A stretch of 64,000 nt of DNA, taken from Methylobacterium bullatum (lineage in GTDB: Bacteria; Pseudomonadota; Alphaproteobacteria; Rhizobiales; Beijerinckiaceae). The notes beneath the pieces were generated by a model. It was not told the DNA's origin. It ran no database searches and saw nothing but the letters and a program-made list of their open reading frames with translations. Where the stretch lies: NCBI RefSeq assembly GCF_014845095.1, contig NZ_NKUG01000003.1, positions 17,086-81,085 of the forward strand. Reading direction: 5' to 3'. Within the stretch, counting starts at the first letter, position 1, and every line of letters begins with the position of its first letter. Positions 717 to 19,603 of this stretch are shown here, piece after piece. The position numbers were made by a program, and so were the translations under genes.

Positions 717-1418
717 ATGCCCCAACGCGTCGTCGACCTGAGCCTCCTGATCGAGGACAACATGCCGGCCCACAAGCTGTTTCAGCGGCCGGTCATCACG
801 ACACATATGAGCCACGAGAGTTCGAAGGCGCTCAACCTCGGCGTCCCTGGCGACGCGATGACGTTCCAGACCAACTTCATCGCAATGCTTGACCACGTCG
901 GTACCCATGTGGACGCTTTTCGCCACGTGAACCCGAACGGTGCGGCCGTCGACGAGATGCCGCTCGACCTGTTCATGGGCAAGGCGGTGTGCTTCGACCT
1001 GCGCCACATCCCAGATCTCGGCGACATCACGGTGGCCGACATGGAAGCGGCCGAGGAACAATGTGGCGTTAGGGTCGACGGTCACATCGTGCTGCTCTGC
1101 ACCGGTTTCCATGCGCGCAACTACCCTGGCCTGGATTCCGTCTGGAAGAACCCACTGCTGACGGCGGAAGCCACGCGATGGCTCCACGCGCGCGGCTCGA
1201 AGATGCACGGCGTCGAGGGTCCCTCGACTGACAAGCCAAGCGACGACATCTTCGCCCAGCACCGGCTCTGTCGCGAACTTGGCATAAGCCATTGGGAATG
1301 GCTGGTGAACCTTGAGGAACTCGTCGGACAGGGAGTGGTGCAGTTCTTCGGGGTTCCGCTGAAGTTCAAGGGCGGCTCCGGCTCGCCGGTGCGTGCCTTC
1401 GCGATCCTCGACGCCTGA
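717..1418 (+). CDS. Cyclase-family (kynurenine formamidase-like) metal-dependent hydrolase
   Basis: A 233-residue protein of the cyclase/kynurenine formamidase fold, whose members hydrolyse amides, lactones or cyclic compounds with a divalent metal. The hallmark HVGTHVDAFRH near residues 61-71 supplies the metal ligands (family consensus HxGTHxDxPxH, with F in place of P here). The start ATG follows a short purine stretch (GAAGGA) about eight bases upstream. It sits about 100 bases after the livF-like gene and about 100 bases before an amidase, all on the plus strand, so a catabolic operon fed by the ABC importer is a reasonable inference. The substrate cannot be named. Confidence 0.8.
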   Translation: MPQRVVDLSLLIEDNMPAHKLFQRPVITTHMSHESSKALNLGVPGDAMTFQTNFIAMLDHVGTHVDAFRHVNPNGAAVDEMPLDLFMGKAVCFDLRHIPDLGDITVADMEAAEEQCGVRVDGHIVLLCTGFHARNYPGLDSVWKNPLLTAEATRWLHARGSKMHGVEGPSTDKPSDDIFAQHRLCRELGISHWEWLVNLEELVGQGVVQFFGVPLKFKGGSGSPVRAFAILDA

Positions 1419-1515
1419 TACCGCCGCCGGAGCCACGAACTTCGTGGGCTTCGGCCCCGGCATCCGTTTTTGAACCCAGGCCCCGTTCCGCAGCCACCTC
1501 GCCCGGAGGATCGTG

Positions 1516-2919
1516 ATGAGCGAGTTCGACTTCATGAGTGCGCTGGACCTGCGGCGCCTCGTGGCGACCCGGCAGGTCTCACCGGTCGAGCTGACCGAGC
1601 GGGCCCTGAATCGGGCCGAGGCCACCCAATCCAGCCTGAACGCCTTCTTCGTGCTGATGCCGGAGGAAGCCCGCGCCGCCGCCCGGCAGGCGGAGGCGGC
1701 GGTCATGCAGGGGGGAGCGCTCGGCCTGCTGCACGGCCTGCCGGTGTCGGTGAAGGACCTCATCTCCATTGCGGGCCAACCCTTCGCCTCGGGCTCCCGG
1801 GCGATGGCGGACAACGTCGCCGCCGTCGATGCCCCTTCGGTGGAGCGCCTGGGGAGGCACGGGGCCGTCATCATCGGCAAGACCACGACCAGCGAGTTCG
1901 GCTGCAAGCCGGTCGGGGACTCGCCCCTGACTGGGATCACGCGCCACCCCTGGGATCTGGCCAAAACCCCCGGAGGATCGAGCGCCGGGGCCGCGGCGTC
2001 GGTCGCGGCCGGCATCACCCCGTTCGCACTCGGAACCGACGGTGGGGGCTCGCTCCGGATCCCCGCCGCGCTTACGGGTCTCGTCGGTCTCAAAGCGCAG
2101 TTCGGACGTATCCCCGTATGGCCGACCTCCGCGACCCCGACGCTCGCCCATGTCGGCGCGCTGGCCCGGTCCGTCGGGGATGCGGCGCTGCTAACCACGG
2201 CCGTGGCTGGCCACGACACACGGGACCCGTTCTCCGTCGCCGGCCCCGTTCCGGATCTCCTAGGAGCGGTCCAGTCTTCCGTCGCCGGACTGCGCGTCGC
2301 CTGGAGCCCGACGCTCGGCTATGCCCGGCCGGACCGGGACGTGGTCGAGATCTGCCGCGCTGCCGCGATGGCGCTAGCCGAACAAGGCGCCGTCGTCGAG
2401 GAGGTCGAGACCGTGTTCGACGGCGATCCCGGCGATCTCTGGACGGCTGAGTTCTATGCCGGCGTCGGCACGCGCCTGCGCGGCGTCCTGGAGACGCAGC
2501 GCGATCTCCTCGACCCGGCCGTGGCGGACGTGCTCGATGCGGCCCTCGCGCAGGAGATGCGTGCCTATTACGAGAGCGTGTTCCGGCGCTACGCGCTTCG
2601 CGATGCCATGGTTCGCTTCTTCGACCGCTACGACGTGCTGCTCTCGCCGACCGTTCCGGTCTCGTCGCTCGCGGCCGGATGCGATCTGCCCGCGCGGTTG
2701 TCGGACCGCAGCCTCGTCACCTGGGTATTCTATACCTATCCTTTCAATCTCACGGGGCAGCCGGCCGCCTCGGTCTGCGCGGGCCTGGGCGCGGACGGAA
2801 TGCCGGTGGGTCTCCAGATCGTCGGCCGCAGCCTCGGTGAGGTGGACGTGGTTCGGGCGGCGGCGGCTATCGAGCGTACCAAGCCTCCGGGCTACAACCT
2901 CAAGCGGCCGGTCGTCTGA
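1516..2919 (+). CDS. Amidase signature family hydrolase
   Basis: Amidase of about 467 residues, the usual length, hydrolysing a carboxamide to acid and ammonia. The Ser-cisSer-Lys machinery is visible: the lysine in VSVKDL (near residue 80), the glycine- and serine-rich GGSSAGAAASVAAG (near 155-168) and the ALGTDGGGSLRIPA strand carrying the nucleophile serine. A GGAGGA ribosome site lies five bases before ATG 1516; a GTG one codon earlier could also serve. Coming after a LIV-type ATPase and a cyclase-family hydrolase, it probably takes part in degrading an imported amide or cyclic amide. The genes after it run on the other strand. Confidence 0.88.
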   Translation: MSEFDFMSALDLRRLVATRQVSPVELTERALNRAEATQSSLNAFFVLMPEEARAAARQAEAAVMQGGALGLLHGLPVSVKDLISIAGQPFASGSRAMADNVAAVDAPSVERLGRHGAVIIGKTTTSEFGCKPVGDSPLTGITRHPWDLAKTPGGSSAGAAASVAAGITPFALGTDGGGSLRIPAALTGLVGLKAQFGRIPVWPTSATPTLAHVGALARSVGDAALLTTAVAGHDTRDPFSVAGPVPDLLGAVQSSVAGLRVAWSPTLGYARPDRDVVEICRAAAMALAEQGAVVEEVETVFDGDPGDLWTAEFYAGVGTRLRGVLETQRDLLDPAVADVLDAALAQEMRAYYESVFRRYALRDAMVRFFDRYDVLLSPTVPVSSLAAGCDLPARLSDRSLVTWVFYTYPFNLTGQPAASVCAGLGADGMPVGLQIVGRSLGEVDVVRAAAAIERTKPPGYNLKRPVV

Positions 2920-3334: not shown

Positions 3335-4561
3335 TCACCTATTTGGCATCACCGCGATCAGGGCGAGGCTGATCAGGATGAGCACGGCCAGGGATGCCGA
3401 TACCGCCAGCGCGACTTGCCGTCCGACACGTATGACCGCCCGCAAATCCACGCCAAGGCCAAGTGCTCCCATGGAGACGACAGTCAGCGTTGCGGCTAAG
3501 TCAGAGATCGGCGTCCTAAGCGAAAACGGGACAAGTTCGAGGGACCGCAAAGCGGCGAGGGTTAGAAATCCGAGAATGAACCAGGGCGCCACCTTGGAGA
3601 GAGCGATGCGCTCGTGCTGGACGGATGGGGCCGTGCTATTGGCACCGCCGCCGACCAGCCGGGGTGCCAGTATCATGAAGGCCATTACCATAGGCCCGAG
3701 CATCAGCACGCGTACCAGCTTCACCAAAGTGCCGACCTGCGTGCTAACGAGTCCTACCGGAGAGGTTGCGGCAATGACCTGCGGAACCGCGTAGACGGTC
3801 AGGCCAGCCAAGACGCCGTACTGGTGCTGGCTCAGGTTCAACAGTGGAACAAACAAGGGAAGCGCGACCACCAGGAGCACCCCAAGAATTGCAGTGAAGG
3901 CGATCGAGGCGGCAACGTCCTGTTCGTCCGCTCCGATCACGGGTGCGAGCGCCACGATAGCCGAGTTTCCGCAGATCGCGTTACCACAAGCGATCAGGAT
4001 CGCCATCCGGATCGGGACACGAAGCGCTTGGCAGATCCACAATCCCGCACCGATCGAGATGACGACTATGGCAATGATCCCGCTCACCAGTAGTGGTCCC
4101 GTTTCAGCAATCTTGCCAATGCTCACGGAGGCGCCGAGAAGCGCGACGGCGAATTCGAGAAGAGGCTTTGCACTGAACTGGATGCCAGGCTGGAAGCCGG
4201 AGGCGGGTTGCCAAGCGGTTCGTATCGCTGCCCCGACCAGAATGGCGATAATCAACGCGTCGAGATAGGGCTGACCGAAGACACCTCGCTCGAGTTCGAC
4301 GAGCTGGAACGAGATGAACGCGAGACCAGTGCAAAGCGCGATGCCCAGCAGGCGCGAGACGATCCATGTCCAGCAGGCTCGGATGACACTCAGCCTCTTT
4401 CTGGCGCAACGGTCGTGCGGGCTCGGCGCGAGTAAATCAACGGGTTCAACCGCCCTCGCGTGGACGATCTCGGGACGCCGCTCGTACGCACTCTGTTCGA
4501 GCAATCGGCACGTTTCCTTGAGTAGGGCATCTATTTCCGCGTCGCTGAAACGAAGGCTCAC
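3335..4561 (-). CDS. YeiH/UPF0324-family putative sulfate exporter
   Basis: Integral membrane protein of 408 residues, belonging to the family annotated as putative sulfate exporters (PF03601). About 85 N-terminal residues are soluble; about nine or ten hydrophobic segments follow. The family motif is seen as ACGNAICGNSAIVA near residues 190-203. The GTG start overlaps the stop of the ferredoxin-NADP reductase gene as GTGA, so translation is coupled and it is the last gene of a leftward operon. Its place behind an organosulfur-type ABC importer and redox proteins fits export of sulfate or another anion released in catabolism; this role is inferred. The soluble extension before the first membrane segment is longer than I expect for the family. 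Confidence 0.78.
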   Translation of the reverse strand: MSLRFSDAEIDALLKETCRLLEQSAYERRPEIVHARAVEPVDLLAPSPHDRCARKRLSVIRACWTWIVSRLLGIALCTGLAFISFQLVELERGVFGQPYLDALIIAILVGAAIRTAWQPASGFQPGIQFSAKPLLEFAVALLGASVSIGKIAETGPLLVSGIIAIVVISIGAGLWICQALRVPIRMAILIACGNAICGNSAIVALAPVIGADEQDVAASIAFTAILGVLLVVALPLFVPLLNLSQHQYGVLAGLTVYAVPQVIAATSPVGLVSTQVGTLVKLVRVLMLGPMVMAFMILAPRLVGGGANSTAPSVQHERIALSKVAPWFILGFLTLAALRSLELVPFSLRTPISDLAATLTVVSMGALGLGVDLRAVIRVGRQVALAVSASLAVLILISLALIAVMPNR

Positions 4562-5331
4562 TTCTCGACGAAGGCCTTCTCGATGACGTAGTGGCCAGCC
4601 TCGCCGTGGTTACCTTCCACGTACCCGCCGCTGATCAGCATCTCGCGGGTGTCGCGGATCATGTCCGGCGAGCCGCACAGCATGAACCGGTCGTTCTCCA
4701 CGGACATCGGCGGCAGTCCGATATCCTCGAACAGCTTACCGGAGGTAATCAGGTCAGTGATCCGGCCGCGGTTGCGGAAGGGCTCGCGGGTGACGGTGGG
4801 GTAATAGATCAGGCCGGCGGTGATGACCTCGCCGAGGAACTCGTGGTTGGGCAAGTCCTGCGTGATCGTCTCGCCATAGGCGAGCTCCGAGACCTGCCGG
4901 CAACCATGGACGAGAACGACCCTCTCGAAGCGCTCGTAGGTCTCAGGATCCTTGATGATCGACATGAACGGCGCGAGGCCAGTGCCAGTGCCTAGGAGAT
5001 AGAGGTTTTTACCCGGCATCAAATTGTCGAGCACCAGCGTACCGGTAGGCTTCTTGCCGACGATGATCGGGTCCCCGACCTTGAGGTGCTGCAGCCGCGA
5101 GGTGAGCGGGCCGTTCTCGACTTTGATCGAGAAGAACTCAAGCTCTTCCTCGTAATTGGCCGAGACGACGCTGTAGGCGCGCAGCAGCGGACGGCCCTCG
5201 ACCTCGATTCCCATCATCACGAACTCGCCGTTGCGGAAGCGGAACGCCGGGTCACGGGTGGTGCGGAAAGAGAACAGTGTGTCGGTCCAGTGGTGGACGC
5301 TGAGAACCCGTTCTTCAAGATACTTGCTCAT
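4558..5331 (-). CDS. fpr: Ferredoxin-NADP(+) reductase
   Basis: FAD enzyme of 257 residues that moves electrons between NADPH and ferredoxin. The FAD-binding RAYSVVSANYEEELEFFSIKV lies near residues 52-72; the NADP-binding GTGTGLAPF follows near 114-122, and MLCGSPDMI near 217-225. The length matches bacterial FPR enzymes of the plant-type superfamily. It lies 27 bases after a 7Fe ferredoxin gene on the same strand, so the two probably form one electron chain serving an oxidation or reduction encoded in this cluster. A general housekeeping FPR is also possible, but the position inside an importer operon argues for a dedicated pair. Confidence 0.9.
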   Translation of the reverse strand: MSKYLEERVLSVHHWTDTLFSFRTTRDPAFRFRNGEFVMMGIEVEGRPLLRAYSVVSANYEEELEFFSIKVENGPLTSRLQHLKVGDPIIVGKKPTGTLVLDNLMPGKNLYLLGTGTGLAPFMSIIKDPETYERFERVVLVHGCRQVSELAYGETITQDLPNHEFLGEVITAGLIYYPTVTREPFRNRGRITDLITSGKLFEDIGLPPMSVENDRFMLCGSPDMIRDTREMLISGGYVEGNHGEAGHYVIEKAFVEK

Positions 5332-5358
5332 GACATCACCTGCGGCGTCTAAATGAAA

Positions 5359-5697
5359 TCACGCGGCTGCCGGGTCGGAGACGCCGAAGACGGCTTTGAG
5401 CTTGTCGCTGCGTCCGTCCCACTCAGCCGCGTCGGCGAGCGGGTCGAGCTTTTCACTGATATTCGGCCAGATAGCGGAATACTTTGCGTTGAGGGCAAGC
5501 CAGCCGTTGAGGGCCGGCTCAGTATCGGCTTTGATCGCCTCGGCGGGACATTCCGGCTCGCAGACGCCGCAATCGATGCACTCGTCGGGATTAATCACAA
5601 GCATGGTATCGCCGACATAGAAGCAATCGACCGGGCAGACTTCGACGCAGTCAGTGTATTTGCAGCGGATACAGTTGTCTGTGACGACATATGTCAT
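5359..5697 (-). CDS. fdxA: 7Fe (3Fe-4S/4Fe-4S) ferredoxin, FdxA type
   Basis: Small electron carrier of 112 residues. The N-terminal half carries the cysteines in [19 protein letters not shown] (3Fe-4S-type spacing) and [12 protein letters not shown] (4Fe-4S). The tail, with the [15 protein letters not shown] stretch, is typical of alphaproteobacterial FdxA. The ferredoxin-NADP reductase gene lies just downstream and the ABC ATPase gene just upstream, all reading leftward, so it is likely the redox partner of that reductase. The family is certain; the metabolic partner is inferred. Confidence 0.92.
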
Positions 5698-5735
5698 TAC
5701 AAAACCTTGCTAATTTATTCAGATTTCTGGCGCAA

Positions 5736-6596
5736 TTAGAGAACAGCCGAGAGATCCTGTCCTTCGAGATTGATCGCGAGCCCCTTGAGCGAATCGAGGC
5801 TAACTTCGCCGCCCATGGCACGGATGCTTTCCTCGCGGATAAGCGACATCAGCCCCCGGCGCAGGCCCAGAAATTCCGATGACAGGGTCATCGAGGGCTC
5901 GCGCGGCCTCGGCAACGGCACCGCAACCTCGGCCTTGATGCCGCCGGGACGGGCCGTCATCACGTAGATGCGGTCCGACAGGAAGATCGCCTCGTCAATG
6001 TCGTGCGTCACGAAAAGGACCGAGATCTTTAACCGCTGCCACATATTGGTGAGGATCTGCTGCATGATCAGCCTGGTCTGCGCATCGAGCGCCCCGAACG
6101 GCTCGTCCAAGAGCAGGATGCGCGGTCCAGTGGCCAGCGCCCGCACGATGCCGACGCGCTGCTTCATGCCGCCGGACAGACGATCGGGATAGTGGTTCTC
6201 GAACGGGGTGAGACCTGCGAGACCGAGCAACGTGCGGGCACGGCGCTCGCGCTCGCTGCGGGACACGCCCTTCATCTTAAGGCCGAACTCGACATTCTCG
6301 CGGACGGTCTTCCAGGGGAACAGCGAGTATTGTTGGAAGATCATCCCCCGATCCGCGCTAGGGCCGGAGATCGCCTCGCCATCCACGGTCACGGTTCCGC
6401 CCGATGGCGTCAGGAAGCCAGCAAGCGCGTTCAGAAGAGTCGACTTCCCGCACCCGGATGGACCGACAATCGAGACGAACTCGCCGGGCTGGACGTTGAG
6501 AGAGACGTCGGAGACCGCATCGACGGCGCCCTCCATGGTCTCGTAGCGTAGGCAGAAGTCGTGGACCTCGATCAGGCCTCGAGCCGTTCCGGCCAT
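5736..6596 (-). CDS. Nitrate/sulfonate/taurine-type ABC transporter ATPase
   Basis: ATP-binding subunit of 286 residues, SsuB/TauB/NrtD class. Walker A is GPSGCGKST near residues 42-50, the signature is LSGGMKQRV near 139-147 and Walker B is ILLLDEPFGALD near 159-170. The C-terminal part after about residue 240 is somewhat longer than in TauB. The permease and binding-protein genes lie directly upstream in the same direction, completing an importer. The ferredoxin gene follows after 39 bases. The substrate class (sulfonate, nitrate, taurine or a pyrimidine precursor) cannot be settled from this subunit. Confidence 0.88.
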   Translation of the reverse strand: MAGTARGLIEVHDFCLRYETMEGAVDAVSDVSLNVQPGEFVSIVGPSGCGKSTLLNALAGFLTPSGGTVTVDGEAISGPSADRGMIFQQYSLFPWKTVRENVEFGLKMKGVSRSERERRARTLLGLAGLTPFENHYPDRLSGGMKQRVGIVRALATGPRILLLDEPFGALDAQTRLIMQQILTNMWQRLKISVLFVTHDIDEAIFLSDRIYVMTARPGGIKAEVAVPLPRPREPSMTLSSEFLGLRRGLMSLIREESIRAMGGEVSLDSLKGLAINLEGQDLSAVL

Positions 6597-6645
6597 GGCG
6601 TGTCCCCTTTGTCCAGTGAAACAGGAGGTCGAGTTGGAGTCGGCC

Positions 6646-7554
6646 TCAGCGGGCCGTCCCCCCGGGCATCACGATGCGGCCGAGCACGCGGATCGCGAAG
6701 CTCGATCCGAGACCGAGGACGCCGATCGTAATCATCCCGAGTGCGATGTCGGAATACTGGACCAGGGAGTATGCCTCCCAAGTGAAATAGCCGATGCCGA
6801 ATTGGCCAGAGATCATTTCGGCGGCGATGAGCGAGACCCAGGCGACGCCCATGCCGACCGTCAGGCCAGTGAAAATCTGCGGGAGCGAGGCCGGAAGGTA
6901 GACCTCGCGGAAGACCGAGGCCTCCCGAGCACCAAGGCAGCGCGCGGCTCGCACCAGCACCGGATCGACGGTCGCCATACCCTGGAGCGTGTTGATGAGG
7001 ATCGGGAAGAACGACCCGAGGAACGTGATGAAGACGATGGATTCCTCATTCGTCGGCCACAGCATGATCGCCATCGGCACCCAGGCGATGGCCGGGATCG
7101 GCCGCGTGAACTCGCAGATCGGAAACACGATCTCGCGAAGGATCTGAAAACGGCCCATCAACAGACCGAGGGGGATCGCGACTGAGCTGGCGAGGGTGAA
7201 ACCGTAGACGATCCTTCGGCAGCTCATCCAGATATGCTCGCCGAATATGGGATTGTGGAACGCGAGGATCGCACGGTCCAGCACGTCGGCAGGGCTCGGG
7301 ACGTTGGTGAAACGGACGTAGAACGTCGCACGGTTGACGGTCAAAAGCTGCCAGATTGCTACGAAGATGGCGATAGAGACGAGACCGAGCGCCATGGCCC
7401 GCAGCTGTCCACGATGAAGCCGGAGCCAGCGTGCCACGCGATCCGTCGGGACAGCCGGGAGGGGCGCCGGTCCAGCTTTGGCTTTGGCGGGTGCCTCGGC
7501 GGGAAGCGTCAACGCTGGCACGGTCTCAGGGAGTTGGCGAAGTGCGGCTTCCAT
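6646..7554 (-). CDS. SsuC/TauC-type ABC transporter permease
   Basis: Inner-membrane permease of 302 residues from the BPD_transp_1 family. The first 50 residues are Ala/Pro-rich and cytoplasmic; about six membrane helices follow. The coupling loop that contacts the ATPase is visible as AARCLGAREASVFREVYLPASLPQIF near 210-235, with the EAA-type glycine. It starts four bases after the binding-protein stop and ends 49 bases before the ATPase gene, the classic operon order. It works with these neighbours; no other permease gene is in sight, so it probably forms a homodimer. Confidence 0.88.
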   Translation of the reverse strand: MEAALRQLPETVPALTLPAEAPAKAKAGPAPLPAVPTDRVARWLRLHRGQLRAMALGLVSIAIFVAIWQLLTVNRATFYVRFTNVPSPADVLDRAILAFHNPIFGEHIWMSCRRIVYGFTLASSVAIPLGLLMGRFQILREIVFPICEFTRPIPAIAWVPMAIMLWPTNEESIVFITFLGSFFPILINTLQGMATVDPVLVRAARCLGAREASVFREVYLPASLPQIFTGLTVGMGVAWVSLIAAEMISGQFGIGYFTWEAYSLVQYSDIALGMITIGVLGLGSSFAIRVLGRIVMPGGTAR

Positions 7555-7558
7555 GGGA

Positions 7559-8992
7559 TCAACCTCCCGACACAGCGGCCTTGATGGCCTCGTCGTAGGG
7601 CATCACCCTCGCCCCGGATTTCTCGGCCGCAGCTTCGGCATCCCGCTTCAGCAGGTAGGGGGAAATGTCTCCCTTGCCACCGACCGCGTAGAACGCCTCC
7701 TTGGCGAAAAGCTTGATACCGCGCGATGTATCGAAGACGTAGGCAACGTTGATCTCCTTGCCCTTGGCCTTAAGATCATCGAGAGCGCCCAGCGTGCAGG
7801 CTGCACTCGAATAGGGATAGATATTTCCGCCCTTGACCCAGATTTCGCCGGCCTTCCGCGGATCGGAAACGGGTTTTTTGCAGAAGCCGTCCTTGCCCGA
7901 AACCTCGTAATTTGAGGTGCTAACGACCTGCTTCTCGTAGTCGAGCCCGCTGTCGGCAAAGACCCTGCGCAGCGGCTTGTCGTTTACCCAAGACGTAACG
8001 TCGAACTCCTTCACGCGGTCGAGCTTCTGCAGGACCTTCACGTCCTCCTTGGCCGCGTCGACCAGTTGCGGCTTAATGGTCGGATCGATGGTCATGATCC
8101 CGCCCGGACCGAGGAAGATGTAGACGACCTCCTTATCCGTACCGGTCCAGGCCGAGATCTGCTCGGCCGCGCGCTTCGGGTCGGCCTTCACCCAGGCCTG
8201 TGCATCGAGGATCGCTCTCAGATAGGCGTCGACGATTTCAGGATATCGCTTGGCGAAGTCGGTGCGGACCACGACGCCGTGCCAGGTCGGCAGATTGGTC
8301 TCGACGCCGTCGAAGACCTTGCGGGCAAAACCCCGGAACGGCAGCAATTCGGCGAACGGGACGAAATCGGCGTGCGCGTCGATCTTCTTCTCCTGGAGAT
8401 TGGTCGAGCCGACTTCGGGGCTCTGGTTGACTAAGCGGAACCAAGTCTGCGGATAACCCTTGTCCTGCAATGCCTTGAGTACCATGCCGTGCGCGGCCGA
8501 GCCGAATGGGACGCTAACCACCTTCCCCTTCAGGTCATCGAAGGAAAACGCGTCGGTCTCTTTGTTAACGACGATGCCATTGCCGGAGCCGTAGAGATTG
8601 TAGGCTGCGACGGCAATGAGCTCGGACTGGCTCTCCGGGTTGTTCTTAAAGGTGAAGCCGTTCACGACAAGCGGATAATCGCCCATCGCTCCGAACTGCA
8701 GCTTGCCGGCCATCATGCCGTTGGTGACCGGCGGCCCGGAGGTGAAATTCTGCCAGTCAAGGGTAATCTTGACGTCGGCATACTTGCCGGTTTTCGGCAG
8801 GTGCTTCTCGAGCAGCTTAAGCTGGCGGATCACGACGCCGACGGTGGCGGTGTTCGTCGTGGTATCCTGCGTGCCGATGCCGACCGTCAGAGCGGTCTCG
8901 GCACAGGCGGGGGTCGCGAGCATCGCACCGGCTGCAGCGAGCAGCGCAATAGCAGAGACCGCACTTCGTCCAACCCAAGTCGACGTCATCAT
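7559..8992 (-). CDS. SsuA/NMT1-like periplasmic binding protein with a NosL-like C-terminal part
   Basis: Secreted solute-binding protein of about 477 residues. I chose the ATG at 8992 (or the next codon, 8989) because AGGGAG stands just before it and a signal peptide follows, ending near the ATPACAET stretch. Residues of about 35-340 match the SsuA/NMT1 binding fold, for example KLQFGAMGDYP and KGKVVSVPFGSAAHGM. This is longer than the usual 320-340 residues. The extra C-terminal 110-130 residues contain a cysteine pair region and INVAYVFDTSRGIKLFAKEAFYAVGG, which resembles NosL, the copper-site accessory protein of nitrous oxide reductase. The NosL similarity is my pattern reading and is less sure than the binding-protein call. 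Confidence 0.82.
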   Translation of the reverse strand: MMTSTWVGRSAVSAIALLAAAGAMLATPACAETALTVGIGTQDTTTNTATVGVVIRQLKLLEKHLPKTGKYADVKITLDWQNFTSGPPVTNGMMAGKLQFGAMGDYPLVVNGFTFKNNPESQSELIAVAAYNLYGSGNGIVVNKETDAFSFDDLKGKVVSVPFGSAAHGMVLKALQDKGYPQTWFRLVNQSPEVGSTNLQEKKIDAHADFVPFAELLPFRGFARKVFDGVETNLPTWHGVVVRTDFAKRYPEIVDAYLRAILDAQAWVKADPKRAAEQISAWTGTDKEVVYIFLGPGGIMTIDPTIKPQLVDAAKEDVKVLQKLDRVKEFDVTSWVNDKPLRRVFADSGLDYEKQVVSTSNYEVSGKDGFCKKPVSDPRKAGEIWVKGGNIYPYSSAACTLGALDDLKAKGKEINVAYVFDTSRGIKLFAKEAFYAVGGKGDISPYLLKRDAEAAAEKSGARVMPYDEAIKAAVSGG

Positions 8993-9149
8993 GCGCTCCC
9001 TTTGATGAAATGCCGTTTCGACATCCAGGGCATGATCGGGCGCTTGATGGATCGCGATCAAATGGAGAGACCAATGTCGAGTTGATTAGTTGCCCAAAAA
9101 GTTTGGCCCACCGCGGACGTGATGCAAATCTGTGCGAGAAGCATTCTAA

Positions 9150-9932
9150 TTAAGCGTCTTTCTTGTCTCCCGGCATACGCGCGAGGACATCGGGACGCTG
9201 GATCAGGATCTGCGAGCGGCGGGCGGAGACGATACCCTGCTCCGTCAACCGCTTCAGGCTGATCGTGACCCATTGGCGGGTGGCGCCGACCATGTGCGCG
9301 AGATCGGCATGGGTGAAATCGGCGGCAATCAGGATGCCGCCCTCCTCCTCCACGCCATAGAGCCCTGAGAGGTGCATCAGCAGGAAGGCGAGGCGATCCG
9401 TGATGGATCGCGTGCCGAGCATTTGAGCGAGCGCCGAATAGCAGCGGCCCTTGAAGGAGAGGCCCTCGATGATTCCGAAAGCCAGTGCGGGAATCTTCGT
9501 CACGAGTTGGCGAAGCGCCGCGCCCGGGAGATGGAGAACGGTCGAGTTGCTCGCAGCCATGCCCGACCAGCTATGGGTACCTGTTCCGAACACCTCAGGG
9601 CCGCCGACGAAATTGCCGGGATACCAATAGGCCAGGGTGATCTCGCGCCCGGTCGGCGCGGCGTAGAACACGCGGATACGTCCTGTCTCGATCAGCCAGA
9701 TGCCGTCGTTTGGCGCCTCCTGGGTGAACAGCGTCGCGCCACGGTAAAGGACCCGGCGACGTCCCTGCTCCATCACTAGGTTACGTTCGAGCTCACTTAG
9801 CCCATAGAGCAGCGGCCGAGGACCGGCTGGCTGCGGAAACGCCTCCATGGGGTTCGGGCCTCCGGAGCATGTGAGAAGCGAAAGGCCCGAAGAGAAATGG
9901 GCTGTCTCCGTCCGAACGGGGGTGGGCTGCAT
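9150..9932 (-). CDS. Crp/Fnr-family transcription regulator
   Basis: Regulator of about 260 residues with an N-terminal cyclic-nucleotide-binding-like beta barrel and a C-terminal winged helix; the HTH reads DLAHMVGATRQWVTISLKRLTEQG near residues 217-240. No FNR-type cysteine cluster is visible in the N-terminal part, so an oxygen-sensing 4Fe-4S role is unlikely. GAGG stands seven bases before ATG 9932; an internal ATG at 9848 is the other possible start. It lies between the importer operon and the flavoprotein/HEAT operon, all reading leftward, and is the natural candidate to control both. The ligand is unknown. Confidence 0.85.
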   Translation of the reverse strand: MQPTPVRTETAHFSSGLSLLTCSGGPNPMEAFPQPAGPRPLLYGLSELERNLVMEQGRRRVLYRGATLFTQEAPNDGIWLIETGRIRVFYAAPTGREITLAYWYPGNFVGGPEVFGTGTHSWSGMAASNSTVLHLPGAALRQLVTKIPALAFGIIEGLSFKGRCYSALAQMLGTRSITDRLAFLLMHLSGLYGVEEEGGILIAADFTHADLAHMVGATRQWVTISLKRLTEQGIVSARRSQILIQRPDVLARMPGDKKDA

Positions 9933-10050
9933 CGCTGAACCTCGCAGGTGACCAAGTGCGATGCCGCAAAGCCTATACCAGCTCTAAACTACGAATCAGT
10001 CCGATACCCAGAGAATGCGAGACTCAAGACAGGCAGCCAATGTCCGCAAA

Positions 10051-10087
10051 GAAGCGGCGCAGGACCTTGGAGGTCCTGCGCCGCTTC
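10051..10087 (-). terminator. Strong hairpin terminator after the HEAT-protein gene
   Basis: A perfect 17-bp stem (arms 10051-10067 and 10071-10087) encloses a three-base loop. Read leftward it is followed by TTTGC, giving a short T-run. It lies 28 bases after the HEAT gene stop and before the Crp/Fnr gene, so it closes the DUF971-flavoprotein-ferredoxin-HEAT transcript. Confidence 0.85.
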
Positions 10088-10114
10088 GTCGGCGTCATGG
10101 GCTGAGGTCTTCGT

Positions 10115-11080
10115 TCAAACCTCCGCCCGACACCGGCCGATGGCCCAGCGGATCAACTTGCGAACGTCCGGATCGGGGTCCTCCGACGCGCTTTCAAGGA
10201 AGCCAAGCGCCTCTGGATGGGCGATCTCGCCGAGAGCCGCAGCAGCTTCCTTGCGCACGTTACTGATGTCCGAATCGAGGGCGCGGCCGAGCACGTCTAT
10301 GGCCGCAGTCGACTTAATCCGCCCAAGGGCATTGGCCGCCTTGGTCTTCACCTGCCAGACTTGGTCAGCCATAGCCGCGATCAGCGGCTCGACGGCCTCC
10401 GGAAGTCGGCTCTTCGCGATGGAAACGGCGGCCTCCTCTCGCACCTGCCAGTTCTCATCCTGCAGGCCGGCCAGCAGCGTCGAGACGCCGGGCCCACCCG
10501 AACGCAGGAAGACGAGGGCCGCCATCGTGGCGCGGCGCACGCTCGCATCGCTGTCGCGTGCCGTAGCGAGCAGGGCTGGAAGCGCCTCCTCGGCCTTGAG
10601 GTAGCCAATCACCCCGAGCCCTTCGCGGCGCACTTCGGGTGAGCCGCTGCATAGGGCTTTCAGCGCGGCGGAGAGAGCATCCGGGATAATCAACTCCCGG
10701 AGCGCCCGGAGGGCTGCGGCCTGGACGAAGGGATCGCTGTGCTCTGCCCGCTCGATGAGCAGCGGTCCACAGGTCGGCTCCTTTTTCTCGGAGAGGGTCT
10801 CGGCTGCGGTGCGGCGCACGTCCTCGTCCGCATCCTCGAGCGAAGCCACCAGGCCCTCGACCACATCGGGACCGTCATGTTCGTCAAGCGCCTTGGCGGC
10901 GGCGGCGCGGACCATCGGATCGTCGTCGCCGAGACCCTTAAGTAAAAGGACCTTAGCCTCGGATCCTACGGCCTCAGCGAGTTCCATCATCGCCACACGG
11001 CGAATGCCGGCATCGGGGCTGGCTGCGCGCTCGGCGAGATCCTCCAGATCATCGTCGAAGGTTTCGATTACGGGGCTCAT
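10115..11080 (-). CDS. HEAT-repeat protein (PBS-lyase-like repeats)
   Basis: About 321 residues made almost wholly of tandem HEAT repeats of about 31 residues, with the recurring pattern of Asp, Val-Arg and Ala-Ala (for example DDDPMVRAAAAKAL, DEDVRRTAAETL, DSDISNVRKEAAAALG). Such all-helical scaffolds bind proteins, and some are found with metal-cofactor enzymes. The start at 11080 follows an AAGAGG site six bases away; an upstream start would translate leader sequence. It is the last gene behind the AprB-like ferredoxin, 46 bases apart, so I infer an assembly, scaffold or docking role for the flavoprotein/ferredoxin pair. No catalytic residues are visible. Confidence 0.85.
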   Translation of the reverse strand: MSPVIETFDDDLEDLAERAASPDAGIRRVAMMELAEAVGSEAKVLLLKGLGDDDPMVRAAAAKALDEHDGPDVVEGLVASLEDADEDVRRTAAETLSEKKEPTCGPLLIERAEHSDPFVQAAALRALRELIIPDALSAALKALCSGSPEVRREGLGVIGYLKAEEALPALLATARDSDASVRRATMAALVFLRSGGPGVSTLLAGLQDENWQVREEAAVSIAKSRLPEAVEPLIAAMADQVWQVKTKAANALGRIKSTAAIDVLGRALDSDISNVRKEAAAALGEIAHPEALGFLESASEDPDPDVRKLIRWAIGRCRAEV

Positions 11081-11126
11081 TTTGACCTCTTGGATCACAA
11101 CGTGGTGGTCTGGCCGGGGCCAATGC

Positions 11127-11360
11127 TCAGCGGAGCAAGTAGGGAATATTGACTTTGACAGCATTCGTTGGGCAATCAACTTCGCATGGCATGCAGTACC
11201 AGCACTCATCGTACTTCATATAAGCTTTTTGCCGCGTTTCATCGATCGCGAGGATGTCGAGTGGGCAGACGTCGACACATACGCGACAACCCTTCTCCGC
11301 GATGCACTTCTCGTCGTCGATAACGACCGCTGCGCTCTTGGCTTGTGTGATGATGGGCAT
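11127..11360 (-). CDS. AprB-like 2[4Fe-4S] ferredoxin
   Basis: A 77-residue iron-sulfur protein. Cysteines occur as CIAEKGCRVCVDVCP (residues 19-33) and CWYCMPCEVDCP (53-64), giving two 4Fe-4S clusters. The insertion in the first motif and the aromatic CWYC second motif resemble the N-terminal part of AprB, the beta subunit of adenylylsulfate reductase, but the longer AprB C-terminal tail is absent. It starts 41 bases after the flavoprotein gene on the same strand and is very probably its electron-transfer subunit. The start ATG 11360 has GGAGA nearby. A role in APS reduction or oxidation is possible but not shown. Confidence 0.85.
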   Translation of the reverse strand: MPIITQAKSAAVVIDDEKCIAEKGCRVCVDVCPLDILAIDETRQKAYMKYDECWYCMPCEVDCPTNAVKVNIPYLLR

Positions 11361-11401
11361 GGAGGTCTCCGTGTCTCTGGGAAAAAGGCCGTCGCGGCGC
11401 G

Positions 11402-13144
11402 CTACTCGGCGGCGACTGGCGTCTTGATGCGGAGTTGATGGTAGGCGCTCATCTCTTCGTCCGCGACGGGAACGATGAAGGGGTCGACTTCGCGCTTGGC
11501 ACTCGCCATGCGGCCGCACTCGTCCTTGAACAAGACTGTATGGCAGGCCCAGTTCGGATCGGTTTCGGGGTGGTCGACGCGCAGGTGGTAGAAGCCCCAG
11601 CGGCTCTCGGTGCGGTACAGCGAAGCGTGTGCTGCCATGTCGGCGCAATCAAGAATGGTCTGTGTCTCCAAAGCCCGCAGCAATTCGTGCGGGTCGCGAG
11701 CAACGAGGTGGCCAAGATCCTCGCGGATCTCCGCAAACCGGCGCTGGCCGAGCTCCATTTTAGCCGTGACCTTCGGCGGCTCGAGATAGTCGTTCACGAA
11801 GCGCCGGGTCTTGAACTCCATCTCGTTCGGGGTGATGCCATCCTCGCGCCGTGTCGGCGCCAGCACTCGCTCCTGCTCGGTCAGGAAGTCGCTCTCGTCG
11901 TAATTGGCGAGGGTCGTTGAAGCGCAATAGGCTGCTGCATCCGCACCGGCGATGCCGCCATTCACGAAGGCGCCGAGCATGTAGTTGTGCGGTACAGCCG
12001 CCATGTCGCCCACGGCGTAGAGGCCGGGAATGGTGGTACGAGCATACTCGTCGACCCAAACGCCCGAGGCGGAGTGGCCGGAGCAGAAGCCGATCTCCGA
12101 GATGTGCATCTCGACGGCACGCTGACGGTAGTTGGTGCCGCGGCGCTCGTGGAAGCGGCCTCGCGAGGGGCGCTCGTTCGAGTGCAGGATCGTTTCAATT
12201 TCCGAAATTGTCTCCTCGCGCAGGTGGTCCATCTTGAGGAAGACCGGGCCGTTGCCGCCCTGCAGTTCCCGCCAGAATTCGAGCATCATCTGACCCGACC
12301 AGTAGTCGCACTCGATGAAGCGTTCACCTTTGTTGTTGGCTGTGAAGCCGCCGAACGGGCCGGTAACGTAGGCGCAGGACGGGCCGTTGTAATCCTTGAT
12401 GAGCGGGTTGATTTGGTAGCATTCGAGGTTCGCGAGCTGCGCACCGGCGTGGTAGGCCATCGCATAGCCGTCGCCGCAATTGGCCGCGTTCTCGTAGGTG
12501 CCGAACAGATAACCGGAAGCGGGCAGGCCGAGCCGCCCGGCAGCACCGCAGGCCAGCACCACCGCCTTGGCCTTGATCACGAGGAATTCGGAGGTGCGTG
12601 TGTTGACGCCGATCGCCCCCGCAATGCGGCCGTCTGGCCCCTTCAGCAGCCGGGTCGCCATGTAGCGATTGGTGACCGCGACCTGGAGGCGGCGCAGCTG
12701 CCTATAAAGCACCTTCTTGACGTTGTGCCCCTCTGGCATGGGCAGCACGTAGGTCCCCATATGGTGGACCTTGCGCATGTTGTATTCGCCCGAGCCGTCC
12801 TTCTCGAACTTGACCCCGAGCTTGTCGAGATACTGGATCATCGGGAAGGAGCCTTGGGCGTAGGCCATCACCGCCTTTTGATTGACGATGCCGTCATTGG
12901 CGACGGTGATTTCCTTCACGTATTGCTCGGGCGTGGCATAGCCCGGCACGACGGCGTTGTTCAGCCCATCCATGCCCATGCTGATTGCGCCTGAGCGCTT
13001 CACATTCGCCTTCTCCATCAGCAGCACCCGCAGCTTCGGATCGGCCTCCTTGGCCTTGATCGCGGCCATCGGACCGCCCGTGCCGCCGCCGATGACGAGA
13101 AGATCGGTCTCGATGATTTCGACCTTGGGGCTGGTGACGCTCAT
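11402..13144 (-). CDS. AprA/fumarate reductase-type FAD flavoprotein
   Basis: FAD enzyme of about 580 residues in the succinate dehydrogenase/fumarate reductase flavoprotein superfamily. The dinucleotide fold is LLVIGGGTGGPMAA near residues 15-28; the substrate-side stretch NVKRSGAISMGMDGLNN (near 46-62) and the later GLYAVGDMAAVPHNYMLGAFVNGG are most like AprA, the alpha subunit of adenylylsulfate reductase. The C-terminal part, with TESRWGFYHLRVDHPE, is also AprA-like. The ferredoxin that follows is AprB-like, so the pair is a two-subunit oxidoreductase. No sat, aprM or qmo gene is in the window, so a sulfur-oxidising role is unsupported, and a distinct substrate is likely. I prefer ATG 13144 to ATG 13159; neither has a strong ribosome site. 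Confidence 0.82.
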   Translation of the reverse strand: MSVTSPKVEIIETDLLVIGGGTGGPMAAIKAKEADPKLRVLLMEKANVKRSGAISMGMDGLNNAVVPGYATPEQYVKEITVANDGIVNQKAVMAYAQGSFPMIQYLDKLGVKFEKDGSGEYNMRKVHHMGTYVLPMPEGHNVKKVLYRQLRRLQVAVTNRYMATRLLKGPDGRIAGAIGVNTRTSEFLVIKAKAVVLACGAAGRLGLPASGYLFGTYENAANCGDGYAMAYHAGAQLANLECYQINPLIKDYNGPSCAYVTGPFGGFTANNKGERFIECDYWSGQMMLEFWRELQGGNGPVFLKMDHLREETISEIETILHSNERPSRGRFHERRGTNYRQRAVEMHISEIGFCSGHSASGVWVDEYARTTIPGLYAVGDMAAVPHNYMLGAFVNGGIAGADAAAYCASTTLANYDESDFLTEQERVLAPTRREDGITPNEMEFKTRRFVNDYLEPPKVTAKMELGQRRFAEIREDLGHLVARDPHELLRALETQTILDCADMAAHASLYRTESRWGFYHLRVDHPETDPNWACHTVLFKDECGRMASAKREVDPFIVPVADEEMSAYHQLRIKTPVAAE

Positions 13145-13211
13145 GATGTGCACTCGCATGTCGGGCGCAGATGCGGACCGCGCGCTCGGGAAAGGAAAGA
13201 CGGGTCAGCGA

Positions 13212-13589
13212 TCAGGCAGCCTTGGGCGTCCGGTCATCGGCCGTGCCGATTTCCAGCTTTGCGGCCTCGCGAGCCAGGTCGCGGAGATAGACCCACGGGA
13301 AGATTCCACGCGCGTGTCCGTCGGAGAACCCGAGGTTCACCGCATATCCGCCCATCGGGTCGATTTTGGTAACGGCGACGGTCTCGAAGGATATAGGAAA
13401 ATTGCCCTGTACTCGGTCCCGCGTGCACCAGGCGCAGCGGCAGCGCAGCCGCAGCGTCTCCGCCTGCAGTACAGCTTCCTCACCATTGGGCCAGACAAGG
13501 CGCATATCGCGACCACCACGGGAGACCACGGCATCGGTCGGGATCGCTTCCGGATCAAACGGCGGCTGTTCGGGCAGTCTCATCGGCAT
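13212..13589 (-). CDS. DUF971 (gamma-butyrobetaine hydroxylase-like N-terminal) protein
   Basis: About 125 residues of the DUF971 domain, found alone near Fe-S assembly genes or at the N-terminus of gamma-butyrobetaine hydroxylase. The family motif is seen as GGYAVNLGFSDGHARGIFPWVYLRDL near residues 82-107. A CRCAWC cluster near residues 47-52 could bind zinc or an iron-sulfur centre. It lies 67 bases upstream of the flavoprotein gene and is the first gene of that leftward operon, so a role in loading or stabilising the Fe-S/flavin partners is a fair guess. ATG 13589 and GTG/ATG choices nearby differ by only two residues. Confidence 0.78.
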   Translation of the reverse strand: MPMRLPEQPPFDPEAIPTDAVVSRGGRDMRLVWPNGEEAVLQAETLRLRCRCAWCTRDRVQGNFPISFETVAVTKIDPMGGYAVNLGFSDGHARGIFPWVYLRDLAREAAKLEIGTADDRTPKAA

Positions 13590-14541: not shown

Positions 14542-15164
14542 TCAACGCGGGGCAAACGCCGGCATGTGGAGCATCAACAGGTTGTCCTCGGATAATCCGA
14601 GGCGGCTGATGGGTGTCTGGCGGTTGATGCCCATGTGAGGCCGCTGCCAGTTGTAGCGGAAGAGGAAGGCTGGGAGCTCCTTCCCGCGTTGATCGGACGT
14701 GTCGTAGGCACGGGCATAAGCCCATTCGCGCAAGGACGTCTGGACGAAGCGCTCGGCCTTGCCGTTGGTCTTCGGGGTGTAGGGCCGGGTGCGTTTATGG
14801 GCGATTCCGAGCCATCGCAAGGCTTTGGCGTAGCGCCTGGATTTGAAGGCCGATCCGTTGTCGGTCATCACGCGCTCGACCGCGATGCCATGGCGACGGA
14901 AGAAGCGCAGGGCGTTGAGGAGAAAGGTCAGGCAGGAGCCTCGCTTCTCGTTGGGGTGGATCTCGGAATAGGCCAGCCGGGAATGATCGTCGACGGCCAA
15001 GTGCAGGTACTCCCATCCGGTCCCGCGGCCTTTGCCCTAACCCGTGCGCTTGACCCTGACCCAGCAAACTGGTCCGCACGGGGCGCGCCGCGACGATCGC
15101 GCACAACATGCCTCCGCTCGACGGCTGCTTCCTCGGGTCGGATCAGACGGCAGAGGAGACGCAA
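14542..15164 (-). pseudogene. Truncated IS481-type transposase with an amber stop
   Basis: The C-terminal half of an integrase-core (DDE) transposase: LAVDDHSRLAYSEI carries the first catalytic Asp region, TDNGSAFKS the second and the KTNGKAERFVQ stretch the Glu. Reading upstream in the same frame gives RVKRTG, a TAG at 15037-15039, then GKGRGTGWEYLH, which shows that the stop interrupts a formerly continuous protein. The N-terminal HTH part is not found in frame; pieces of it seem to continue in another frame to about 15164. It is therefore dead unless the TAG is read through. Confidence 0.78.
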
Positions 15165-18694: not shown

Positions 18695-19603
18695 TTATCC
18701 GAGTTCAGAAATGCTGCGCAGCACCGACACGTAGCGCTCGGTTTCAGCGTCTAACCATCTGATGATCCGTTCACGTTCGCCTTCGTCGACATAGCGAACC
18801 GACAACTTTTTGATGAAGAAGTATGGGCTAGTGGGATTGAAGGGAGTTCCGAGCCGCTCGCTTAGGGTTGACGCCAACGGTGCGAGGCGCTCCGCAGTCA
18901 GTGATGGTGCGGTGCGGGCGGGCCCACGGATGAACAATCCAACTTCTTGAACAGCAAGATAGCGAGCCACGACAAGACCCTTGTCGTCGAGTGGTACCGT
19001 GCGGCTGGATGCAGCCGTCGGCACGCCATAGGCACTCTCGTTGGGAAGACGCTCGCAGAAAGCCGTCCAGAAAGTGAGACGTTGCTCACCCAAAGCAGTA
19101 CGCCGTCCGCTCTCCTGTGTGCTTCCTTGAAGCCGTCGCTCCCAACCGTTAGGGCGCTCCAGTACGTCGAAGAGCGGAGCGAGAGGCGAGTCTCCAATTC
19201 GCACAATTCTGAGTTGAACTGCGAAAAACGCAAAGTCTTCGGCTGTGTGCTGGTTGAGCCAGCGAATGGCAGATAGATGCGGTTCGCGGAACTGAGGCGC
19301 TACCCAGATTACAGCGCGAGCGTCCAAGCCCGCAAGGTAGGTCATGATTTGACCGAGGTGGGTGTGATCGCTGACCTCGAGCTGGTTCTCGATCAAAACG
19401 TGTGAACTGTCTTGCACGTTGCGGGCGAGTATGTCGGCAGCGAACGAATCGACAGCAGCCTCGGACTGGACGTGCTCCAACTGGAGCCCGACCGCGCTGC
19501 CCAAGCGGCCGAGGTTCTGAGCCAGCCAGGGCGTAAAAGCATGGGCCTCGTGCGACCAACCAATCCGGACAGGCACATCTTCCAGCACACCAAATTCTGC
19601 CAT
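18695..19603 (-). CDS. PD-(D/E)XK-type nuclease with a DUF4268-like C-terminus
   Basis: About 302 residues. The N-terminal half looks like a restriction-type nuclease fold: an Asp in FAADILARN, then VLIENQLEVSDHTHLGQIMTYLAG, where ENQ takes the place of ExK; WLNQHTAEDFAFFAVQ follows, as in the family usually labelled DUF4268-containing. The C-terminal half is the DUF4268-like part. I chose ATG 19603, with a GGTGAG site; a TTG at 19645 would add 14 residues. It starts 58 bases after the SRA-HNH nuclease gene on the same strand, so the two probably form one defence operon. Confidence 0.68.
   Translation of the reverse strand: MAEFGVLEDVPVRIGWSHEAHAFTPWLAQNLGRLGSAVGLQLEHVQSEAAVDSFAADILARNVQDSSHVLIENQLEVSDHTHLGQIMTYLAGLDARAVIWVAPQFREPHLSAIRWLNQHTAEDFAFFAVQLRIVRIGDSPLAPLFDVLERPNGWERRLQGSTQESGRRTALGEQRLTFWTAFCERLPNESAYGVPTAASSRTVPLDDKGLVVARYLAVQEVGLFIRGPARTAPSLTAERLAPLASTLSERLGTPFNPTSPYFFIKKLSVRYVDEGERERIIRWLDAETERYVSVLRSISELG

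What the first reader, a model, noticed from the sequence alone, without database searches (positions are those of the whole stretch)
3335..13589. AprAB-like redox pair with HEAT and DUF971 proteins beside an organosulfur-type importer and a putative sulfate exporter
Seen: ten leftward genes, including an AprA-like flavoprotein, an AprB-like ferredoxin without the AprB tail, a HEAT-repeat scaffold, DUF971, Crp/Fnr, SsuABC-like transporter, FdxA, Fpr and a YeiH-type protein. Known: AprAB interconverts APS and sulfite plus AMP, and YeiH-type proteins are annotated as putative sulfate exporters. Inference: an undescribed pathway takes in a small, perhaps sulfur-containing, compound and releases an anion. 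No sat, aprM or qmo gene lies here, so it is probably not dissimilatory sulfur oxidation.
Basis: partly seen in the sequence, partly recalled or inferred. Interest (0 to 1): 0.72.

Follow-up and report, generated by a model that had tools for sequence, protein, structure and literature searches.

The report
APS-reductase cousin with sulfonate importer
A set of genes found together in many bacteria encodes a transport system predicted to take in a small sulfonate-like compound and a flavin enzyme, related to but distinct from sulfate-metabolism enzymes, that would likely split it to release sulfite; if so, it is a likely new way for bacteria to obtain sulfur.

Summary
In detail: eleven (not ten) leftward genes at 3335-13589 form a compact operon-like set. 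It is not a local accident. Among 80 named relatives the ferredoxin gene lies beside the flavoprotein gene in 80, HEAT in 77, and ferredoxin, HEAT and a complete ABC importer together in 68; relatives occur in cyanobacteria and actinobacteria. The flavoprotein is neither AprA nor a fumarate reductase: it groups apart, beside AprA and PAPS-reductase-like proteins. In 86 of 86 loci and 120 of 120 database hits an AprA active-site arginine is Leu and three cysteines stand in active-site segments; 0 of 126 AprA/PAPSR-like proteins share these. The binding protein keeps TauA's sulfonate-holding Gln and Gly but not its amine-holding residues, in 73 of 73. Electron carriers (FdxA, Fpr; Rnf once), Fe-S maturation genes (DUF971, Mrp) and sulfite-exporter relatives (YeiH, TauE) recur, the exporters in a minority. 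Best reading, inferred: a small amine-free sulfonate is imported and reductively split to sulfite with NADPH-derived electrons. Substrate, reaction and direction are untested. Ten searches of the held open-access library found no description of the cluster. The most useful tests: ligand screening of the binding protein and a sulfite-release assay.

The parts
13212..13589 (-). DUF971 / GBBH-like_N protein (125 aa), predicted Fe-S maturation helper
   Evidence: PF06155 69.6 bits, cut-off 22.8; gene linked in 63 of 80 named loci; the two cyanobacterial loci have an Mrp/NBP35 gene after HEAT and no DUF971 match by tblastn
11402..13159 (-). AprA-like FAD flavoprotein (585 aa), separate branch of the APS-reductase superfamily
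   Evidence: NF006131 1056.7 bits, cut-off 587; TIGR02061 aprA 144.5, cut-off 641.75; nearest solved chain MtPAPSR 9.8e-60; trees; residues
11127..11360 (-). AprB-like two-[4Fe-4S] ferredoxin without the AprB tail (77 aa)
   Evidence: Fer4_7; matches AprB and MtPAPSR beta chains; motif CW.C..C...CP in 87 of 87
10115..11080 (-). HEAT-repeat protein (321 aa), predicted scaffold of the flavoprotein
   Evidence: HEAT_2 1.7e-49; matches the HEAT half (positions 631-894) of the flavoprotein-HEAT fusion model NF010374, 95 bits; such a fusion is present in Tsukamurella L088; 77 of 80 loci
9150..9932 (-). Crp/Fnr-type regulator
   Evidence: PF00027 and PF13545; a Crp (32) or GntR/UTRA (41) regulator in 73 of 80 loci, never both
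7559..9061 (-). ABC substrate-binding protein, TauA/SsuA-like, with an extra C-terminal domain related to NosL
   Evidence: Foldseek TauA 1e-20, SsuA 2.1e-18; TauA Gln30 and Gly61 kept in 73 of 73; NosL PF05573 hit in 14 of 35 relatives, not in the window copy
6646..7554 (-). ABC permease
   Evidence: PF00528 2.5e-25; 70 of 80 loci
5736..6596 (-). ABC ATPase
   Evidence: PF00005 1.6e-35; 72 of 80 loci
5359..5697 (-). FdxA ferredoxin
   Evidence: NF045490 163 bits, cut-off 135; 32 of 80 loci
4558..5331 (-). Fpr-like ferredoxin-NADP reductase
   Evidence: NF008178 164.5 bits, below its cut-off of 390; PF00175 and PF00970; 29 of 80 loci
3335..4561 (-). YeiH-type (UPF0324) membrane protein, predicted sulfite exporter
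   Evidence: PF03601 200.9 bits, cut-off 24.5; TIGR00698 127, below cut-off 232.6; 14 of 80 loci

Best explanation
This conserved gene module encodes an APS-reductase-like flavoprotein of a separate branch together with an ABC importer, and it is predicted to import a small sulfonate-type anion and likely to split off its sulfo group reductively as sulfite. Shown: the operon, its conservation, the separate position of the flavoprotein, the altered active-site residues, and the sulfonate-holding residues of the binding protein. Inferred: the binding protein captures a small sulfonate that has no amine group. NADPH electrons pass through Fpr and FdxA (or through Rnf in one relative) to the AprB-like ferredoxin, across its conserved Trp, to FAD. 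Reduced FAD, probably with the invariant cysteines, cleaves the substrate to sulfite. The HEAT protein holds the flavoprotein; DUF971 or Mrp helps load the iron-sulfur clusters. Sulfite is reduced by the cell's sulfite reductase, and surplus would leave through YeiH or TauE.
For: Linkage: Fd 80, HEAT 77, SBP 70, permease 70, ATPase 72, DUF971 63 of 80 named loci; all of Fd, HEAT and ABC in 68 of 80. A cyanobacterial plasmid carries importer, flavoprotein, ferredoxin and HEAT with YeiH and TauE/SafE; an actinobacterial plasmid has flavoprotein and HEAT in one 893-aa protein. Family one group at 98/94 or 82/95 without the NadB row; split from SDH/FRD 100/100 in both. Residues. Binding protein: TauA Gln30 and Gly61 kept 73 of 73, Ser131 73 of 73, while Glu106, Trp176 and Asp205 are Asn, Phe and His in 73 of 73 (roles of Gln30, Gly61, Glu106 and Asp205 from passages of PMC6906117). 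Redox partners: FdxA or Fpr in 43 of 80; Rnf genes and TauE beside one relative, L023. The own genome has two sulfite/nitrite-reductase-family (NIR_SIR) genes.
Against: No activity, ligand or phenotype is known. YeiH is linked in only 14 of 80 loci and FdxA or Fpr in 43 of 80, and no TauE passed the linkage rule, so exporter and donor are not obligatory parts. Alkyl carbanions are poor leaving groups, so flavin attack on a plain alkanesulfonate is chemically hard; an activated sulfonate or an N-, O- or S-linked sulfo group would be easier. The cysteines are placed at the active site by alignment only; the flavoprotein model is weak there (stretches with pLDDT under 50). The importer proteins fall below the curated cut-offs of the sulfonate and taurine models. 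The 80 loci are the best of 590 and over-represent close kin. The own genome also has an SsuD over its cut-off, so the module is not the cell's only predicted desulfonation route.
Confidence: 0.45

Rival explanations
1. The module handles an inorganic or N/O-linked sulfo anion (for example thiosulfate, a polythionate or a sulfamate) rather than a carbon sulfonate, again yielding sulfite.
For: Only the sulfo-holding residues of the binding protein are kept; the tail-binding residues differ in 73 of 73. S-S, N-S and O-S bonds suit flavin or thiol attack better than C-S (general chemistry).
Against: The nearest solved binding proteins are the taurine and alkanesulfonate ones.
Confidence: 0.22
2. 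It is an APS or PAPS reductase of the AprAB or MtPAPSR type used for sulfate assimilation.
For: Nearest solved chains are MtPAPSR alpha (9.8e-60) and AprA (1.3e-37); Asn67, Asp256, His362 and Trp521 are shared with all 126 cousins compared.
Against: The AprA Arg is Leu and the AprA Trp is Tyr in 86 of 86 loci and 120 of 120 hits; the PAPS loop Lys-Arg-Ser is Val-His-His; the own genome has two adjacent PF01507 genes, presumably cysH and cysD; an importer would not be needed.
Confidence: 0.08
3. It imports and reduces a metal, metalloid or organometal compound, with the cysteines as ligands and the NosL-like domain as metal carrier.
For: Invariant cysteines in the flavoprotein; NosL-like domain on the binding protein; the ATPase scores best against SaoA, which I recall as linked to organometal-type selenoprotein clusters.
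Against: Sulfonate-holding residues kept 73 of 73; the cysteines of the C-terminal domain of the window copy are absent from many relatives; nearby YeiH and TauE point to sulfite.
Confidence: 0.12
4. It is an ordinary fumarate-reductase-like enzyme acting on a carboxylate.
For: Same fold and automatic name; E. coli FrdA chains rank above D. gigas AprA in the fold search.
Against: Separate from SDH/FRD with 100/100 support; the SDH residues recalled as catalytic (H242, R286, H354, R399) are absent in 27 of 27 by alignment.
Confidence: 0.04

Closest known systems
PAPS reductase of Methanothermococcus thermolithotrophicus (MtPAPSR, 8a8o)
   Same: Nearest solved structure by sequence and fold; FAD subunit with small two-cluster ferredoxin subunit; shared Asn, Asp, His and Trp positions
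   Different: Arg to Leu, Trp to Tyr, new invariant cysteines, no PAPS loop residues; partnered with HEAT and an importer
Dissimilatory APS reductase AprAB
   Same: Superfamily; small ferredoxin partner whose CWxC motif aligns with D. gigas AprB
   Different: Below the aprA cut-off (144.5 against 641.75); no AprB tail; separate group; no sat, aprM or qmo gene among the eleven
TauABC and SsuABC sulfonate importers
   Same: Binding-protein fold and the Gln/Gly/Ser sulfonate cradle
   Different: Amine-holding residues replaced; extra NosL-like C-terminal domain; no SsuD or TauD oxygenase in the operon; scores under the curated cut-offs
NCBIfam NF006131 (PRK08275) and NF010374 (PRK13800)
   Same: The flavoprotein is a member of NF006131 (1056.7 bits, cut-off 587); NF010374 is a flavoprotein-HEAT fusion that matches two separate window proteins
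   Different: Both carry only a generic fumarate reductase/succinate dehydrogenase name, with no reaction assigned
YeiH sulfite-resistance protein of Salmonella (PMC12880088, abstract read)
   Same: The window protein is in PF03601 and scores against the YeiH family model TIGR00698
   Different: It scores 127 against the TIGR00698 cut-off of 232.6; the Salmonella protein was not compared directly

Membership tests
AprA, dissimilatory APS reductase alpha | Score over the TIGR02061 cut-off | tested here: not met
   144.5 against 641.75 bits
AprA, dissimilatory APS reductase alpha | Active-site Arg265 and Trp234 (A. fulgidus numbering; labels recalled) | tested here: not met
   Leu and Tyr in 86 of 86 loci and 120 of 120 further proteins; Arg and Trp in 6 of 6 AprA and 120 of 120 PAPSR-like
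AprA, dissimilatory APS reductase alpha | Conserved Asn74 and the active-site His (labels recalled) | tested here: met
   Asn67 and His362 in 86 of 86 loci and 120 of 120 hits
AprA, dissimilatory APS reductase alpha | AprB partner with C-terminal tail | tested here: not met
   77 aa, against 150 and 166 aa for solved AprB chains
MtPAPSR-type PAPS reductase | Lys120-Arg121-Ser122 loop | tested here: not met
   Val131-His132-His133 aligned
MtPAPSR-type PAPS reductase | PAPS-dependent activity | not testable with these tools
   needs protein
Succinate dehydrogenase / fumarate reductase | Falls inside the SDH/FRD clade | tested here: not met
   split 100/100 (four outgroup rows, three), with long-branch warnings in both
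Succinate dehydrogenase / fumarate reductase | Catalytic H242, R286, H354, R399 (E. coli SdhA; labels recalled) | tested here: not met
   Asn, gap, Ile or Val, gap in 27 of 27 by alignment; the gapped columns are less sure
NF006131 (PRK08275) | Score over the curated cut-off | tested here: met
   1056.7 against 587 bits
Sulfonate binding protein (SsuA/TauA) | Score over the TIGR01728 cut-off | tested here: not met
   117.6 against 163.5 bits
Sulfonate binding protein (SsuA/TauA) | Sulfonate-holding Gln30, Gly61, Gly79 of TauA | tested here: met
   Gln 73 of 73, Gly61 73 of 73, Gly79 as Gly in 48 and Ala in 25 of 73
Taurine-specific TauA | Amine-holding Glu106 and Asp205 | tested here: not met
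   Asn and His in 73 of 73; the Asp205 column lies near a gap
YeiH family | TIGR00698 cut-off | tested here: not met
   127 against 232.6 bits; PF03601 is met, 200.9 against 24.5; the Pseudanabaena relative scores 218.6
NosL domain | PF05573 match of the C-terminal domain | tested here: inconclusive
   14 of 35 relatives at E <= 0.01, best 5.7e-7; none in the window copy at E <= 1

The most novel reading that the evidence does not exclude
A widespread oxygen-independent desulfonation route: a third class of APS-reductase-fold enzyme in which cysteines lining the flavin pocket replace the arginine used on APS, so that an imported sulfonate is split by a flavin-thiol mechanism fed by ferredoxin, with sulfite assimilated or pumped out. 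It would join the known oxygenase, lyase and glycyl-radical routes as a separate chemical solution.
Probability: 0.3. Interest if true: 0.82.

Novelty: new variant of a known kind. Interest (0 to 1): 0.62.

Why it matters
A residue signature (Leu253 with Cys247, Cys262 and Cys359) now separates it cleanly from the AprA and PAPS-reductase-like proteins compared, which would keep sulfur-cycle surveys from counting it as APS reductase. If the reading is right, soil and plant bacteria, rhizobia among them, have a reductive route to sulfonate sulfur that needs no oxygen, and the conserved binding-protein pocket makes the substrate directly findable.

Tried and rejected
APS reductase and fumarate reductase readings: rejected by residues and trees. 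The only APS reductase of the cell: unlikely, since two adjacent PF01507 genes, presumably cysH and cysD, are present. NifA-controlled alkane sulfonate operon of Paraburkholderia phymatum (Bphy_7232-37, PMC8305402, passages read): not shown to be this cluster; no P. phymatum record is among the 51 plasmid records listed. Literature: the searches listed no paper that I could recognise as describing the cluster in the held open-access library. I read listings only, except passages of PMC8305402, PMC12581299 (no match to the cluster), PMC10322725 and PMC6906117, and the abstract of PMC12880088. Most subscription papers, and preprints, are not held.

Faulty steps that I discarded or mended: the HEAT query was out of frame, so its HEAT column is void (mended); the ORF clustering was swamped by reverse-strand ORFs (replaced). 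In one search three TauA positions (Asn55, Asp84, Ser109) did not match the residue in the fetched sequence and were dropped. The NadB row is a long frame cut to its last 560 residues with an end branch of 6.13; the tree was therefore built again without it: support for the family fell from 98/94 to 82/95 and for the PAPSR-like group from 98/99 to 91/98, while AprA plus PAPSR-like stayed at 100/99 and the split from SDH/FRD at 100/100. The flavoprotein model (mean pLDDT 72.6) is too weak at the pocket to judge the cysteines. Foldseek rank order for it is MtPAPSR, A. fulgidus AprA, E. coli FrdA, with D. gigas AprA only twelfth.

Row selections: the tree (48 rows) used 27 of 87 family proteins (86 loci and the window), 11 of 120 listed PAPSR-like hits, 6 of 40 AprA matches and 4 outgroup rows. 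Residue counts use 86 loci (80 kept of the 590 relatives, plus 6 of the 51 plasmid records), all 120 listed hits, all 120 and 6 AprA; loci and hits may share sequences. 73 of 75 binding proteins were used (two under 400 aa dropped). The 87 ferredoxins include the window's own copy. The YeiH count drops L010, whose 63% identical frame is only 152 aa.
Full report
What is there. Eleven minus-strand genes fill 3335-13589: DUF971, AprA-like flavoprotein, 77-aa ferredoxin, HEAT, Crp/Fnr, binding protein, permease, ATPase, FdxA, Fpr-like and YeiH-type. Nine of ten gaps are under 90 bases or an overlap, and the widest is 182 (ORF starts as listed). An integrase-core fragment lies upstream at 14542-15000.

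Is it more than chance. Linked to them (starts at most 3500 bases apart, step by step) the ferredoxin is present in 80, HEAT in 77, ATPase in 72, binding protein and permease in 70 each, DUF971 in 63, a regulator in 73 (GntR 41, Crp 32, never both), FdxA in 32, Fpr in 29, YeiH in 14, Mrp in 3 and TauE in none; ferredoxin, HEAT and a complete importer occur together in 68 of 80. Gene order varies (for example GntR-AprA-Fd-SBP-Perm-ATPase-HEAT-DUF971 in 12, the window order without YeiH in 6), so linkage survives rearrangement. Only 60 of the 80 loci are 19 kb or longer, so the counts are lower bounds; the sample is biased to close kin. The flavoprotein is patchy: 26 of 297 genomes of the order, 15 of 299 of the phylum, and 3 of the 6 own-genus genomes in that sample.

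Beyond Proteobacteria. On plasmids, 51 records match; I read six regions. Pseudanabaena has the importer, a LysR gene, flavoprotein, ferredoxin, HEAT, Mrp/NBP35, YeiH and TauE/SafE. Nostoc has the flavoprotein, ferredoxin, HEAT and Mrp, with other genes between, near metX and an O-acetylhomoserine aminocarboxypropyltransferase gene; it has sulfonate-type binding proteins but no permease or ATPase match in the stretch. Tsukamurella has ferredoxin, importer and one 893-aa protein with an FAD domain and HEAT repeats, over the cut-off of the fusion model NF010374 (1568.1 against 1196). Acinetobacter, Acidithiobacillus and Mesorhizobium carry variants. The fusion model matches the window flavoprotein (positions 11-568, 806.6 bits) and the window HEAT protein (positions 631-894, 95.1 bits) separately, which argues that the two proteins touch.

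The flavoprotein is a separate branch. Solved chains rank MtPAPSR (9.8e-60), AprA (1.3e-37), SdhA (1.3e-21). In a 48-row tree the 27 family rows form one group (98/94), beside AprA and PAPSR-like rows joined at 100/98; all are split from SDH/FRD/NadB at 100/100. Without the doubtful NadB row the family stands at 82/95, AprA plus PAPSR-like at 100/99 and the split from SDH/FRD at 100/100. The outgroup is small and on long branches, so the root is less sure than the split.

The active site is different. In 86 of 86 loci and 120 of 120 further family proteins the equivalents of AprA Asn74, Asp268 and the active-site His, and Trp521, are kept, as in 120 of 120 PAPSR-like and 6 of 6 AprA (residue roles recalled). 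Arg265 is Leu253 and Trp234 is Tyr222 in all of the former and in none of the 126 cousins. Cys247, Cys262, Cys359 and Cys505 are present in all of the former and in none of the 126. By alignment, Cys247 lies four residues before, Cys262 next to, and Cys359 three residues after positions that are catalytic or substrate-binding in SdhA (SDH labels recalled). So the pocket is likely lined with thiols and has lost an AprA arginine. The PAPS-specific loop is also absent.

Electron path. The ferredoxin keeps CW.C..C...CP in 87 of 87, the motif that aligns with the CWEC of D. gigas AprB; a Trp of the MtPAPSR complex (Trp42) is proposed for electron transfer (PMC10322725, passages read). FdxA passes its curated cut-off (163 against 135); Fpr does not (164.5 against 390) but has both domains. 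In L023 Rnf genes and TauE follow the cluster. These partners fit a reductive direction; that is inference.

The importer. The binding-protein model is good (mean pLDDT 87.6) and nearest to TauA and SsuA. TauA holds the sulfonate with Gln30 and the main-chain amines of Gly61, Gly79 and Thr132, and the amine with Glu106, Thr132 and Asp205 (PMC6906117, passages read). In 73 of 73 family proteins Gln, Gly61 and the neighbouring Ser131 are kept; Gly79 is Gly in 48 and Ala in 25; Glu106 is Asn, Trp176 is Phe and Asp205 is His. This pattern points to a sulfo group on a small ligand without an amine, likely the same ligand throughout. A C-terminal domain of about 100 residues matches NosL in 14 of 35 relatives, though not in the window copy; its role is unknown.

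Sulfite as product. [quoted passage not shown] YeiH is linked in 14 of 80 loci. TauE lies beside the Pseudanabaena and L023 clusters; three more TauE-like matches, in L026, L027 and L072, were not followed. The own genome has two adjacent PF01507 genes, presumably cysH and cysD, two sulfite- or nitrite-reductase-family genes and an SsuD over its cut-off, so the module would add to, not replace, oxygen-dependent desulfonation.

Mechanism. I commit to import of a small sulfonate and reductive release of sulfite by the FAD protein, with a likely cysteine-sulfite intermediate. The gene set, trees, residue signature and sulfonate cradle are shown; substrate, direction, product and cysteine role are inferred. 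DUF971 as a Fe-S maturation helper rests on its place beside Fe-S proteins and on an Mrp/NBP35 gene in the two cyanobacterial clusters, where no DUF971 match was found. The weakest link is chemistry: a plain alkylsulfonate is a hard target for a flavin, so an activated sulfonate or a related sulfo compound may be the real substrate.

Verdict. It is a new variant of a known kind, the APS-reductase superfamily, in a conserved module that is undescribed as far as the searches of the held literature show.

Noticed in passing
window 25559-31575 (+): Two adjacent genes match RADAR defence proteins: 1156 aa RdrA (7e-23) and 846 aa RdrB (4.9e-30).
   Followed up: partly
window 18695-23408 (-): Further defence-candidate genes: PDC-S11 match at 18698-19645 (2.2e-83), PDC-S15 match at 22440-23408 (1.2e-34), and a weak type IV restriction match at 19664-20587 (2.6e-5).
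   Followed up: partly
window 29083-29153 (+): The only predicted tRNA (Ser) lies inside the RdrB-like reading frame and is probably a false positive.
   Followed up: no
window 14542-15000 (-): Integrase-core (rve) fragment beside the cluster, consistent with mobility.
   Followed up: no
L086 6652-8667 (-): A LysR regulator gene next to the Pseudanabaena cluster also carries an NMT1-like binding-protein domain, weakly matched (3.6e-4); it may sense the imported compound directly.
   Followed up: no
L089 10574-14035 (+): A 1153-aa FAD oxidoreductase of unknown role follows FdxA in Acidithiobacillus caldus and has relatives in L044, L068 and L076.
   Followed up: no
window 717-2919 (+): A putative cyclase and an amidase gene lie beyond the YeiH end on the other strand; the amidase groups with genes of five other loci.
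   Followed up: no
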